A stretch of DNA of 64,000 nt, taken from NCBI GenBank assembly GCA_036583965.1, contig JAZBQD010000019.1, forward strand, positions 18,040,085 to 18,104,084. The letters are read 5' to 3'. The DNA comes from Prunella strophiata (lineage: Eukaryota > Chordata > Aves > Passeriformes > Prunellidae). Every line of letters begins with the position of its first letter. Positions within the stretch are counted from its first letter, which is position 1. Positions 45,401-51,400 of this stretch are shown one piece after another. The notes beneath the pieces are model-generated. The model was not told the DNA's origin, ran no database searches, and saw nothing but the letters and a program-made list of their open reading frames with translations. Position numbers and translations under genes: made by a program.

Positions 45401-48400
45401 AAATCTTAAGTACAAACTCCTGCTTTGTTCCTTTCCTTGTTCTTGCTTGAAGCTAAGACATAATGGCATTACCTCTTCTTAAAAGCAAACAAGACTCAGA
45501 GAATCATAGAATGGCTTGAGTTGCAAAGGATCTTAAAGATCATCCAGTTCCAATCCTCCTGCCATGGTCAGAGACACCTTTCACTAGACCACGTTGCTCA
45601 AAACCTCATCCAGCCTAGCCTTGAACACTTCCAGGGATGGGGCTTTCCCATCCATTCCCCCTTGTCCTATCACCACACGCTTTTGTAAAAAGTACCTCTC
45701 CATATTTTCTTGTGGGCTTTCTTAAGGTACTGTAAGGCAGCAATTAGGTGACCCCAAAACCTTCTCTTCTTCAGGCTGAACAATCTCAAATCTGTGTCAT
45801 GTCACCTTAAGGCTTTCTTGTCTGCTTGTCTTGGCTTCCCTCATGTGGGGAGAAAGAATATGGAGAACAAACTGTTGAGTCTAGAGGCAACATTCTACTT
45901 TATAGCTTTTTGAATACTGTTGAATTGGGACTGAGTATTTGGCTTCTAGAGCTGAATATTTAATTTAAAATTTGACCTTAAAATCACCCAAATATTTACT
46001 GAAAGGTTTTGGCCTTCCTTCCACTGTATGTTAACTGATAAGAGGTTTTTTATTGAACACCTATTTTACCATTCATTCTCTTGCAGTGTCACTTGGCACC
46101 ACTTCTCTCATCAGCACTATAGTTCAATTTGCAGTCTGCCATTTCACAAGAGGGGAATATACTGAAATGTACTGCTGCACACCAAGCATTTTCTGTAATT
46201 CCTGTTAAACACATCACAGATAAGCTCTTAGTTATCTGGCTAAATTTTTACTTGTAAGATATTGTTCTAGATACTTCATCCTCTAAGGCACTAGTTTATA
46301 TTTCTTAACAAGTAAAAAAAAAAAAAGAAGAAAGAAATGGAGAATCTAATGCTTCTGAATTCTTGTTCAAGAAAACCCTGTTGTTTCAGTTCCATGAATA
46401 CTGTGTGTGAGGGAGCTGTTCTGCAAATGTGGAGTGTGTTTTGAGTGCATGCAGTTCTGTGCCCTTTTTTCCATCTCTTTCAGCATGGAAATTCTGCAAC
46501 CATTCATTTTGTTCTTCTGAGCTGTCTCTGTGGTTAGGCAATTTTTCTGAGTACCTAGGTAGCTAGAATGCTTTAAATTGCAAGGACCTTTTGGTATTAC
46601 AAATTTTTCTTTTGGTAGACTTACTGTTTCAAAGGTTTCAAACATCTGAACAGAACTTCATTGCTACTTTTCTTCTTAGTAAGTTTTATGTCTTAATTAG
46701 TTTTAGTTCTAGGCTTTGATTGTCATCAACACTTAGACTTTTATTTCTGTCCTTATTTGACTACATGAAAAAGAGAAATGCTCCCTACTCTTCTTCACAT
46801 TGCCAGAGGGCTATTACAAGAAATAATTTGAGGGTTCATGCCTACTGATCTTTGAATCAAGTTGCAAAATCTTTTCAATACATGCATGCATGCACACAGT
46901 GCATCATTCTTTTAGATATAAAACTGAAAAAAAAATTTTAGACTGTGGACTGGGCTTTTTTCAGATGCAGCTGTATGTGCAAGCTACTGAAAATATAGTT
47001 TTTAATTATTTTCTTTTAATTTCTGGTTTGAGTTTTCAGATAGTACCAGCCCTCTATACATGTGGTTCATTCTTAACTATTAAGGTTGAGTATATTTTGT
47101 GTGGGTGTATTTTACCTAAGAGGTTCCACAGACAAATGTGAGCTGTTTATCATCTTTAACAGAGAAATAGTAAAGAGAAGCTGGAAAGACAGAATAGGAA
47201 TTCTTTTCTGCTGGCGTGTTTGAATTCAAAGTTGGTTGCCCTCAGTTTTGTTGTAAATATGCAATTCTAGGTTTATTCATTGCTTTCCCTGAAAGTTAGT
47301 GAACGTGAGAACCAAGCAGTGGGTAAACTTAAGTATTAAACACCTAAAACACCAAGGATTTTTATTTTTTGTTCAGTGAAATGAGCAGTGAAAAAAATGT
47401 TTAGGTGCTCTTCACTTGAACAGGACAGGTGTTTGGCAAAGATTTCTGTTCTTGTAGAGAGCTGCATGGATAGGTCTTTTCTATTTTAAAACTTCAATCC
47501 CTGTTTTTTCAATGTACTTTTTTTGGGATTAGGTTAACTTTTGCTTCTGATCACTTGGGGAGGTATGTCCACTTCCACGTATCACCCAGCGGTCATTTTT
47601 AGATTAGCTTAACATGACTGACTTGATGATAAATCCATTATTTTGTGTAATGAATTACATACATGCCAGGGAGTCAGTGTGTTGAGAGTGTCCAAGTGGA
47701 GTATATGTGTACACTTGTGGTGTCAAAAGTTATCCAAGTGATGAGAAGCTCATGTTTGTGTAATGACCACCTCAATATCAGTGATAACCCTTCAGTTTTA
47801 AAAACACTTAGCATTAACTTTGTCTTAGTTGCCACCATAGCTCTTGTTTGAGAAGTGAAAACTTATCCATCCTGGTCTGTAAATAGAGGCTTCCACTGAC
47901 TCCTTCCAAAGTTCTTGTTTTCAGTCTTAAATTTCATGTTGCCTCATTGATGAAGGCTGTACTTTAAGTGGTGTTATCTGTTACTAAGGTGCTTCGACAT
48001 TCTTTGGACAGACTGGGTCTGTGGAACATTGGCATCATCGCTGCGGATGGAGATTGGGGCATCTCAAAAGAGATGTTAGTTGATCCCTCTCTTAATGATG
48101 CTATTGAGGTAGTCGGGTAAGTGTGGGAGAAGGGAGGCCTTTTAAACATTGCTATTGCTTCCTATCTGTAAGTCTTCCACTCCATTTTCAAGAGTCATAT
48201 ATTCTTATTTCATATTTCCTAGCTGTTTCCATTATTGTGTACAGTGGTGATGGATTAGTCTTTCTTGTCTTTCTCTCTTCTTTCAGTTCAGTACATACGT
48301 AAGCTGACCTTATAACTCTTCTGTCATTTCTTTCAAGTGTCCATTTAGGAGCTGTGTTTTAGGCTTCTTAGCACTAGCAAATGACAGGAAACTTCTAACT

Positions 48401-51400
48401 AATCTGCATGTGCATGTTCCAAGTCAGAAAAACCTTAGGATTGGATTCTTGGTCTGCAACTGGTTTTCATTTTGGGTGAACTTGAACTTTCAGAGTGGAA
48501 CTTACCACCCTGGGACTTTCTGTGGCTGCAGCTGAGATTTTTCTGGTCATATACGAGAGCTAGAAGTTTCTGTTTCTTGGTTAATTTCTGATAACAGATA
48601 ATATTAGAAATGCACGCACTGACAGTAACATAGAAGTAAAAACAAGCACACAAAGTTTGTAAACAAATACAGCCTATCTCAATTTTTTTCAGTTGGTGTT
48701 TCAGCAAATGTCAACTCAGCTGTTTGCCTTCACTCTTGTTCTGTAATACACTTTTCTACTTGCTTCTGGCAATTAACTCTGCTGCTCTTCCTCTCTTTGT
48801 AAACTCTGGTTTCTCAAAATGTACACAGATTTTACAAAATTACATGTTCCCAGTGGAAATTACCTATGTAGATACAAATTGCTCACTTGTGTTATGTTTG
48901 TTAACTTGTTTATCTCTGTTGTTAACATTACTGTGATAAGAACAATCTTGTGGTCACTTATGTACCATTTATCCTCTGTATATAAGGAAGTATGATATGC
49001 TCATCATAGTTTAAATGAATGTGTAGTTCAAGTCAGTTATAGGAAGTCAGTTAAGCAGGGATTTCATAAAGAAACTGCTTTTGTATGTGTTGAGTTTGTA
49101 AACATCAATCACCTGAAAGTGGCTGCATGAGAAATACTGATTATGGTGTCAGCATAGAGTAACTCATTTGGTCTAAAATAAACTTAAAACTTTCTTAGGT
49201 TCAGCAAGACTTGAAGTTCAGCAGGTGTATTAGGAAATTTTTTTAGTAATGATTTTCATGACAATACAGCTTGAAGAATGAATGCACTGACTGTGTATGG
49301 CTCTTGTTTCTTTAAGAGCTTGACAGAATTGAGGATTGGAGTACTTGTTTTTGTTTGTGCCTTTAGAGCCACAGACATGTTTTAGCTGTTCTTTAAAATG
49401 GAAGTTCTTTTTGTCAGAGGTTTTCCTTGAATGTCATACAGATTTTTCCCCAGGTCCCCTACCACCACTGATCATAAAAAATGAAGTGTTAGGTTTTCCT
49501 GTGCAGTGGTTTTGTTATCTATCAAGAAACTAAGGTTAGTACAAAACAAGAACTCCATGTTTCTCAGCCAATGCTGACTTTAAGGTACTAACTACCACGG
49601 AGTTCTTGCTGACCTAGTGAAAGATAATAGTATTTAGGTGTCTGTCCTTCAAATGCTCAGGTTCAGAAAGTTCATCTTGTAGTTTATCTGTCAGCACTAT
49701 AACATCTAAGTGGCTGATCTGCAAATAGAGTATCTTGCATGAAATGTGATATGCTTTGTCTTTATCTGTACTTTTGTGTCTGTAAGAAGAATGAAACATT
49801 TTTAATTTTTCCTTTCATCATGCTTTTTGGAATTCAGTATGGTAGAAGGTGTCCTTTGAAGCCACTTTGTGCTTGACAGTCTTGTACGTTTTGTTTGGTG
49901 TAACAGTTGTCCAAGTTGCAAAAACATGAATTGAAGCATAGTAGTTTTTTCAGCAATCACTGAAGAAGATGCTGCCTTTCCCAATATAAAGTTTTGACAA
50001 TTTGAAAAACATTTATTTTATTTGTCCCTTCTCTCTGTTCTTTGCTCTCCTTTTTTTTTTCCAAGCTGTTGAGGTACACATTGGATAAGCATGGTCTGGA
50101 GCAGGTGAGGATCATAGCCAGCGATAGACTGTGGGAGCCCATTTCCTTTGTCATGATGATTGACTCTGAGCTCCACGGAGTGGTCGATGTGATTGGGTAG
50201 GGGGTTCTCTCTCTTCTTCTTTCTTGGTGGTTTGTTTATAGTTTGTCTTCATCTTATTTATGACTAACACAGACAAAGCTTTACCACTCTGTACTCCTAC
50301 CTGCAAGGAAAGGATTGATACTATAAAACTTTCTTACTAACCCAATCAGATCACACAGCTCTTGTCCCAGTAACAGCCTCAACCTTTTAATTGAATCAGG
50401 AGTCTTCTATCATGCTGAAGATTCCTGTTGGGCATGGTTGCACTTTGATGTATTGAAGGTTTTTTGGACAACACTGCTTATCCTAAGGGTTTTGGTTACT
50501 CTTAACTGGTATGCAAAAGTGCTTTAGTTTTACAGCTTAGTACACAGCCTTGTAGTTTCCACTGGCTTGTTACTGAGATTTTGTGATTCAGAAATGAATT
50601 TGGGCTGTGATTCTTCTTTGAGTTACAATGGCTTGATTCTTAGTTCCCATTTTGTTTTAATGACAAATTTGTGTTTGGAAAACATGGAACCAGCTGACTT
50701 GTTATCCTAGTCCTGGGTTTTGTCATAATAATATTATACTAGTAGGCTAAGTCTGAGATTGATTACTGACTTAATGGCTGAATGGAAATGTGTGTACAAA
50801 ATGTTCATTAACTTTTCCTTTTACAGTAGCTCTAAACTTTACTTACTAGGTCCCATAAACTTGTCTGACCCAATCACATGCTTCAAATTTGTCAGTTCCT
50901 TGTTTCAGTTTGAGTCTTTTCCATTCATCTTTATATATGTGAACCATAGCAGGTGTAGAAATGAAGGCTATTTCTGCAAATACAGATAGGAAGTCAGTGT
51001 TATCTACCCTTGCAATTAACCCCTCCCCCCATTCTGAACATGAAGAATATCCTGGGGGTTTTTCCTAGGTGGAGTCTTGGGTCATGTCTGGATGAAGCTC
51101 AACAGTTTTTACACTGTCTAAGTAAGGTGTATTTGCTTAACTCTATAAGTGTAAGTTTTACATCCCTACTTTGATTCAGTCTTAACAGGGAAATTAAATA
51201 TCTCTTGTGTATTTCAGATTTTATCAGGCAGGGATATTGACACTTAACAAACACCTTTTCAGGAGTGTAGAAAGACAAATTATTCCTTCTCTGCTTTGTT
51301 TTTGCAAGCTATGCACGTGATGCCATTACAAAAAACTTTTGCTTGGTACTAAGGCAATACTTAGGTTTCCAAGCCAAAGGGGAAGTACACACTAATCTGT

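What the first reader, a model, noticed from the sequence alone, without database searches (positions are those of the whole stretch)
47989..50196. GALC carries two mutually exclusive versions of exon 7
Two exon-like blocks 1.95 kb apart both encode the segment between exon 6 and exon 8. They align end to end, share start phase 0 and the same two-base Gly overhang, have GT-AG borders and no internal stop. Joining 7a to 7b gives GGC TGT TGA, an immediate stop. Skipping both shifts exon 8 so that it stops at TAA 52506-52508. Only one copy at a time makes an enzyme, the logic of mutually exclusive splicing. I know of no such isoform pair for mammalian GALC, which has one exon 7 in the position of 7b.
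Basis: partly seen in the sequence, partly recalled or inferred. Interest (0 to 1): 0.92.

Follow-up and report, generated by a model that had tools for sequence, protein, structure and literature searches.

The report
Bird GALC's two alternative exon 7s
In this bird the gene for the myelin-lipid enzyme GALC (lacking in Krabbe disease) carries two different, interchangeable versions of one exon; relatives of both versions occur from fishes to birds, whereas the mouse enzyme matches only one of them, so many backboned animals can probably make two forms of the enzyme.

Summary
GALC lies on the + strand (exons 1-16, 35969-63043). Exons 7a (47989-48116) and 7b (50066-50196) code for the same GH59 barrel segment, between the catalytic Glu of exon 6 and that of exon 8. 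Either alone keeps the frame; both together stop at once; neither stops in exon 8. 7a is no relic: of 124 protein ids, 83 carry a 7a-type segment (sharks to birds) and 29 a 7b-type; 65 of the 83 are named isoform X2 or 2-T2 (hand count). Five models hold both, 7a first. Segments group by exon type, not species, so the duplication predates bony vertebrates. Bacterial GH59 segments resemble 7a more. The swap changes the loop with mouse Glu215, where a Krabbe mutation may disturb saposin A docking, so I infer that exon choice tunes saposin or lipid handling. Pyrimidine tracts on both sides of 7b suggest PTBP1-type control (inferred). No RNA was examined. Caveat: 7a evolves faster than its neighbours, and this copy has three changes absent from five passerine relatives.

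The parts
44778..44816 (+). GALC exon 6 (39 nt, phase 0 to 0; IWNER..., holds the acid/base Glu, human E198, mouse E182)
   Evidence: catalytic residues from PMC12429000 passages, numbering checked on a recalled human sequence
47989..48116 (+). GALC exon 7a (128 nt): [42 protein letters not shown] + GG
47959..47988 (+). 7a acceptor region: longest pyrimidine run only 3 in -25..-4, ends AAG; its pyrimidine share (0.65) is not lower than that of exons 8, 12, 14, 15 and 16
48117..48122 (+). 7a donor GTAAGT (10.4 on a recalled matrix, fourth best of 17)
50045..50062 (+). 18-nt pyrimidine run upstream of 7b (the acceptor also ends AAG)
50066..50196 (+). GALC exon 7b (131 nt), the version that matches mouse [47 protein letters not shown] + GG
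50197..50202 (+). 7b donor GTAGGG (5.3 on the same matrix; weak, but exons 5 and 13 score lower)
50205..50225 (+). 21-nt pyrimidine run just after the 7b donor; 10 TCTT/CTCT words in the 100 nt from +7, against at most 3 after any other exon: possible PTBP1 site
48268..48284 (+). 17-nt pyrimidine run in the intron between 7a and 7b, 152 nt after 7a (a further possible CU-binding site, so 7b is not the only exon with such a tract in its neighbourhood)
52419..52574 (+). GALC exon 8 (156 nt; holds the nucleophile Glu, human E274, mouse E258)
52506..52508 (+). TAA met in exon 8 if both exon 7 versions are skipped
35969..63043 (+). GALC exons 1-16 (the last exon lies beyond the window)

Best explanation
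GALC carries a tandem, mutually exclusive exon pair. A transcript that uses 7a or 7b alone keeps the frame and both catalytic Glu residues (shown). Double inclusion or double skipping shifts the frame and meets a stop two codons after the junction codon or at the 30th codon of exon 8 (shown), and is presumably lost to nonsense-mediated decay (inferred). The pair arose by duplication before the bony-vertebrate radiation (from the tree and the species list); 7a keeps the older sequence type. The exchanged segment is a helix-strand-helix-strand unit of the barrel. The loop after its first strand is one residue shorter in 7a and, in this bird, lacks the Glu-Pro of 7b. That Glu is mouse E215, on the surface beside the saposin A site. 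I infer that exon choice tunes saposin or lipid engagement, not the chemistry. For control I infer competition between the two exons, with a CU-binding protein such as PTBP1 on the tracts around 7b favouring 7a where it is abundant.
For: Frame arithmetic. Pfam GH59 match of each exon. 83 protein ids with 7a-type and 29 with 7b-type segments of 124; 65 of the 83 named isoform X2 or 2-T2 (hand count). Five gene models with both types in the order 7a-7b: P0003, P0011, P0041, P0068, P0093. In the tree each exon type is one side of a branch (7a support 89/92, 7b 99/95) although both hold birds and other classes. 25 of 26 bacterial segments score higher with a 7a profile, and 23, 23 and 22 of 26 with size-matched tetrapod sets. 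Catalytic Glu residues lie in exons 6 and 8. E215 lies in the 7b loop, 43 residues before the nucleophile in the mouse chain; E215K traffics normally and lies beside the saposin A site (PMC5764952 sections 6, 7, 8, 10 read; PMC4949656 passages). Flanking tracts of 7b and splice-site scores. The 7a segment is modelled as helix-strand-helix-strand at block-mean pLDDT 80-89, in an otherwise mediocre model (mean 62.7).
Against: No RNA reads were seen. Isoform labels are machine annotation; one 7a-type entry is named X1, and 17 more have no X2 label (hand count). No species name appears in both my 7a and 7b single-form lists (by eye). Five entries fuse the two exons in frame, each by trimming one of them. 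One penguin model (P0026) uses neither, and two eagle models (P0033, P0034) join 7a to exon 9. 7a evolves fast: window against Ammospiza 6 of 42 differences against 5 of 279 in exons 2-6 and 8-10; this copy lacks a Tyr kept in 80% of the 83 7a segments. No shark 7b was seen. The tree has 42 columns, an unsettled bootstrap, and bacteria that need 2 changes. The splice-site contrast is soft: the 7a acceptor's pyrimidine share and the 7b donor score are within the range of other exons, and another 17-nt pyrimidine run lies 152 nt after 7a. The PTBP1 and saposin steps are untested; E215 is described as making no direct saposin contact.
Confidence: 0.85

Rival explanations
1. 7a is a once functional exon now in decline in this bird or in passerines: still spliced in, but under relaxed constraint, while 7b carries the needed activity, as in the mouse.
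For: 7a differs from Ammospiza at 6 of 42 sites against 5 of 279 in nearby exons, and the three changes absent from five passerine relatives include the conserved Tyr. The 7a acceptor has no long pyrimidine run. Mouse GALC has the 7b type.
Against: No stop, indel or broken splice site in this copy, and 7a is open in the five passerine proteins seen. The other passerine pairs differ by 1-6 of 42 as well, so speed alone is not decay. The private changes may also be assembly errors, given the frame slips in exons 13 and 16.
Confidence: 0.12
2. 7a is never translated into working enzyme: it is a switch exon whose use makes misfolded or inactive GALC and so lowers enzyme level (unproductive splicing).
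For: Activity of a 7a enzyme is unknown here. Double inclusion and skipping are both stop-generating.
Against: 7a alone keeps the frame and both catalytic Glu residues and is conserved at the protein level from sharks to birds, which a poison exon would not need. Most bacterial segments tested are more 7a-like (25 of 26).
Confidence: 0.04
3. The second exon is an assembly or annotation artefact, for example a misjoined piece of a paralogue.
For: The window shows frame slips in exons 13 and 16, so the assembly may not be flawless. The window's own genome could not be searched (genome search busy).
Against: Gene models of a mockingbird, a pigeon, a skink, a moray and a halosaur give both exons in one gene in the same order, and 7a sits in frame with exact GT-AG borders.
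Confidence: 0.01

Closest known systems
PKM exons 9/10 and ketohexokinase exons 3a/3c (recalled, not looked up here)
   Same: A duplicated exon in a metabolic enzyme gene, one copy used at a time, changing one stretch while the catalytic core stays. PKM choice is governed by PTBP1 and hnRNP A proteins (recalled).
   Different: GALC is a lysosomal hydrolase; the pair is older than bony vertebrates and the mouse enzyme shows only one version. No RNA evidence here.
GALC isoforms X1/X2 in NCBI and UniProt entries
   Same: The same two exon versions, annotated automatically in many species.
   Different: I found no paper that describes them (judged from listings). The one exon-evolution study of 110 GALC orthologues that I opened, PMC12008523, reports 21 exon layouts and a bat N-terminal duplication; its main text has no occurrence of 'exon 7', 'isoform', 'mutually', 'alternative' or 'splic' (figures not held).
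Human 34-bp cryptic exon between GALC exons 6 and 7 (PMC12731088, passages read)
   Same: It lies in the intron where 7a sits in birds, and its inclusion changes Ile208, the first residue of exon 7, to Val, the residue with which 7a begins.
   Different: 34 bp, frameshifting, present in two RefSeq transcripts and strongly used in a Krabbe allele. Descent from 7a is an untested guess; a Val start can be chance.
Glycoside hydrolase family 59 of bacteria (L001-L039)
   Same: Same barrel segment, more 7a-like in 25 of 26 segments tested.
   Different: Single version of the segment seen; the loop is often a few residues longer.

Membership tests
Mutually exclusive tandem exons | Adjacent homologous exons of one gene coding for the same protein segment | tested here: met
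   17 of 43 identical, end to end, score 75 against a shuffle maximum of 22; both match the same PF02057 stretch 152-195
Mutually exclusive tandem exons | Same entry and exit phase, and joint inclusion breaks the frame | tested here: met
   128 and 131 nt, both 2 mod 3, entry phase 0; joint inclusion reads GGC TGT TGA; skipping stops at 52506-52508
Mutually exclusive tandem exons | Both single-exon products exist in annotation | tested here: met
   83 7a-type and 29 7b-type of 124 protein ids; 65 of the 83 named isoform X2 or 2-T2 (counted by hand).
Mutually exclusive tandem exons | Junction reads for both single paths and none for 7a-7b | not testable with these tools
   No RNA-seq reads available; 5 models fuse both exons by trimming
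Glycoside hydrolase family 59 (PF02057) | Profile match over the segment with flanking exon 8 | tested here: met
   79.2 bits with 7a and 76.9 with 7b, cut-off 27
Glycoside hydrolase family 59 (PF02057) | Both catalytic Glu residues present in either isoform | tested here: met
   WNE in exon 6 and WSSE in exon 8, outside the exchanged part
PTBP1-regulated exon | CU-rich tracts on both sides of the regulated exon (recalled criterion) | tested here: met
   18-nt run upstream and 21-nt run downstream of 7b; no other of the 17 exons has runs of 15 or more within about 100 nt on both sides, but a 17-nt run lies 152 nt after 7a
PTBP1-regulated exon | Binding and response to PTBP1 level | not testable with these tools
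   no RNA or binding data

The most novel reading that the evidence does not exclude
Vertebrate GALC is a two-state enzyme: the ancestral-type 7a form and the 7b form differ in the loop next to the saposin A dock, so splicing decides which lipids or which activator GALC serves, perhaps 7b for myelin galactolipid in PTBP1-poor neural cells and 7a elsewhere. Mammals lost the 7a form, and the 34-bp cryptic exon in human intron 6 is its relic, now a cause of Krabbe alleles.
Probability: 0.15. Interest if true: 0.85.

Novelty: new member of a known kind. Interest (0 to 1): 0.66.

Why it matters
GALC is the Krabbe disease enzyme, and the solved structures found here (mouse) and the saposin work built on them are of the 7b form. 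A second, older-type form found from sharks to birds is a natural experiment on the loop near the saposin site. It also warns that fish, frog and bird models may carry two GALC isoforms, and gives a concrete hypothesis for cryptic splicing in human intron 6.

Tried and rejected
Rejected: that 7a makes a catalytically dead enzyme by losing the nucleophile. The Glu in the LWEP loop of 7b is E215, not the nucleophile; both catalytic residues are in exons 6 and 8.

Rejected: minor-spliceosome incompatibility, or a donor and branch point too close together, as the cause of exclusion. All 17 donors begin GT and the exons are 1949 nt apart. The minor-spliceosome motif was compared by eye from memory.

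Led nowhere: inverted repeats in the introns gave 34 weak pairs (25 shown), several of them A/T runs, and without other genomes' DNA no covariation test was possible. Searching for a mammalian 7a with a reptile-like consensus found 4 proteins among 6 candidates, all four reptiles; the word filter is too strict for that to prove absence in mammals. The AlphaFold model of the 7b form was poor (mean pLDDT 42.3), so the two models were not compared. The 83-to-29 ratio says nothing about usage, because the listed 120 of 5043 proteins were ranked with a 7a query. A paper search on zebrafish galca/galcb listed 4 papers, none opened.

Rows left out: of 124 protein ids, 12 were not classed by the script: 2 are the window's own exons, 5 fuse both exons, and P0024, P0026, P0033, P0034 and P0096 have altered neighbours. 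Of 39 bacterial loci, 7 gave no long enough frame, 2 (L027, L036) were dropped by hand as misaligned, 30 gave a segment and 26 were distinct. The tree used 102 rows, with the fish 7a rows thinned at random.
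Full report
What is there. The window carries GALC on the + strand. Between exon 6 (44778-44816) and exon 8 (52419-52574) lie two exon-like blocks, 7a (47989-48116, 128 nt) and 7b (50066-50196, 131 nt), 1949 nt apart. Both start in phase 0, end with GG, have AG and GT borders and are open. 7a plus 7b reads GGC TGT TGA; leaving out both leads to TAA at 52506-52508. The coordinates stated in the finding are right.

More than chance. The two peptides align end to end with 17 of 43 identical, score 75 against a maximum of 22 in 5000 shuffles; the DNA has 70 identical of 134 aligned columns. 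Each alone matches the same piece of Pfam Glyco_hydro_59 just below its cut-off (25.9 and 23.6 bits, cut-off 27), and clearly when followed by exon 8 (79.2 and 76.9 bits). The mouse crystal chain aligns with 7b without a gap and with 7a with a one-residue gap.

7a is alive in other species. A search with the 7a stretch alone found 5 proteins among 11 candidates, all passerines, 86-91% identical. A search with the whole 7a isoform gave 5043 proteins at E up to 1e-10, of which the best 120 were listed. With those and the window's two exons, 124 protein ids were examined: 83 carry a 42-residue 7a-type segment, 29 a 43-residue 7b-type segment, 12 were set aside. 7a-type includes four sharks (Heptranchias, Mustelus, Cetorhinus, Heterodontus), coelacanth, lungfish, sturgeon, paddlefish, bowfin, many teleosts, frogs, caecilians, squamates, tuatara and passerines. 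7b-type includes axolotl, turtles, alligator, squamates and many birds. By my hand count from the listings, 65 of the 83 7a-type entries are named isoform X2 or 2-T2, one X1 and 17 have no such label; of the 29 7b-type entries 12 are named X1 or 1-T1. No species name is in both lists (by eye). The list was ranked by a 7a query, so the ratio of the two types means nothing. Labels are machine annotation, not reads.

One gene, fixed order. Five gene models contain both types, always 7a first: P0003 (Mimus), P0011 (pigeon), P0041 (skink), P0068 (moray) and P0093 (Aldrovandia, a halosaur). Each trims one exon, as gene predictors do to keep a frame; taken at face value they are in-frame double products and count against strict exclusion. 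P0026 (penguin) uses neither, and P0033 and P0034 (eagles) join 7a to exon 9.

Age and direction. A tree of 102 segments puts all 49 7a rows on one side of a branch (support 89/92) and all 27 7b rows on one side of another (99/95), although birds and other classes are in both. The segment gives only 42 columns, the bootstrap had not settled, and the bacterial rows need 2 changes. With 7b seen in two teleosts (inside the fused models), an amphibian, reptiles and birds, and 7a in all of these groups plus sharks, the duplication predates bony vertebrates; sharks probably have both, but no shark 7b was seen. Of 26 distinct bacterial GH59 segments (from 39 loci), 25 score higher with a 7a profile than a 7b profile, and 23, 23 and 22 of 26 with size-matched tetrapod sets. 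So 7a keeps the older type and 7b looks like the derived copy, the one that the mouse enzyme has. When, and in which mammals, 7a was lost is open: the search for it found only 4 reptile proteins among 6 candidates and was too insensitive to exclude a mammal.

What the exchange does to the protein. Catalytic Glu residues E198 and E274 of the human precursor (PMC12429000, passages), that is E182 and E258 in the numbering 16 lower used for the mouse, are in exons 6 and 8, so both isoforms keep them. The AlphaFold model of a 7a protein is mediocre overall (mean 62.7) but gives the 7a stretch as helix-strand-helix-strand at block means of 80-89; the 7b model was poor. The clearest difference is the loop after the first strand: 7b has W-E-P (E-P in 27 of 29), 7a has W followed by a variable residue and is one residue shorter. 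In some amphibians and the coelacanth the Glu is kept but not the Pro. This Glu is mouse E215: it lies 43 residues before the nucleophile in the mouse chain. E215K causes Krabbe disease yet is secreted, reaches lysosomes and lies on the surface, adjacent to the saposin A site without direct contact (PMC5764952 sections 6, 7, 8 and 10 read; PMC4949656 passages). Hence my proposal that exon choice tunes saposin or lipid engagement. This step is inference.

How the choice may be made. On a matrix recalled from memory, 7a has a good donor (10.4) and no long pyrimidine run before it (longest 3), while 7b has a long run (18) and a weaker donor (5.3). The contrast is soft: the 7a pyrimidine share (0.65) is matched or undercut by exons 8, 12, 14, 15 and 16, and the donors of exons 5 and 13 score below that of 7b. 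7a and 7b are the only 2 of the 16 acceptors (exons 2-16) with A at -3. 7b alone of the 17 exons has pyrimidine runs of 15 or more within about 100 nt on both sides; the downstream one (50205-50225, 21 nt) starts 9 nt after the exon, with 10 TCTT/CTCT words in 100 nt against at most 3 for any other exon. A further 17-nt run lies at 48268-48284, 152 nt after 7a. This is the layout of a PTBP1-repressed exon (recalled). Frame-based removal of wrong products would do the rest. No RNA or binding data were available.

Against the reading. 7a evolves faster than its surroundings: window against Ammospiza 6 of 42 differences in 7a and 5 of 279 in exons 2-6 and 8-10; the six other passerine pairs show 1-6 of 42 and 8-16 of 279. 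This window has three changes not seen in the five passerine proteins compared, one at a Tyr kept in 80% of the 83 7a segments. Relaxed constraint in this bird is possible, as are base errors.

What is known. Six searches that could have found a paper on GALC exon pairs gave none that describes them: 0 papers; 1, 5 and 4, judged from listings and starts of abstracts, with only PMC12008523 opened. That paper (sections 13 and 14 read, passages otherwise) compares exons of 110 GALC orthologues, and its main text has no occurrence of 'exon 7', 'isoform', 'splic' or 'mutually'. PMC12731088 (passages) describes a 34-bp cryptic exon in human intron 6 whose inclusion begins with Ile208Val; 7a begins with Val at that place. 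Whether it descends from 7a is untested. The kind of system, a tandem exon pair in an enzyme gene, is well known (recalled); this member appears undescribed in the papers searched, though visible in databases.

Noticed in passing
window 58270-58415 (exon 13) and 62965-63043 (exon 16): Each of these GALC exons changes reading frame part way through compared with the intact protein of Ammospiza (P0005), while exons 1-12, 14 and 15 keep their frames. Most likely assembly errors, but a real loss of function in this bird is not excluded.
   Followed up: partly
window 45500-45780 (intron 6): Sequence that looks like a remnant of a CR1 retrotransposon, common in birds (recognised from memory only, in the output).
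   Followed up: no
P0026, Aptenodytes patagonicus isoform X3 (no window coordinates): Annotated protein in which an unrelated stretch of about 30 residues stands in place of exon 7.
   Followed up: no
P0033 and P0034 (Haliaeetus albicilla and Morphnus guianensis, isoform X3 and 3-T3): Annotated isoforms that join 7a directly to exon 9, losing exon 8 and the nucleophile Glu in frame: a candidate inactive form.
   Followed up: no
window 47986-47988 and 50063-50065: Both alternative acceptors end in AAG whereas the other 14 end in CAG or TAG: inherited from the duplication or selected to be weak.
   Followed up: no
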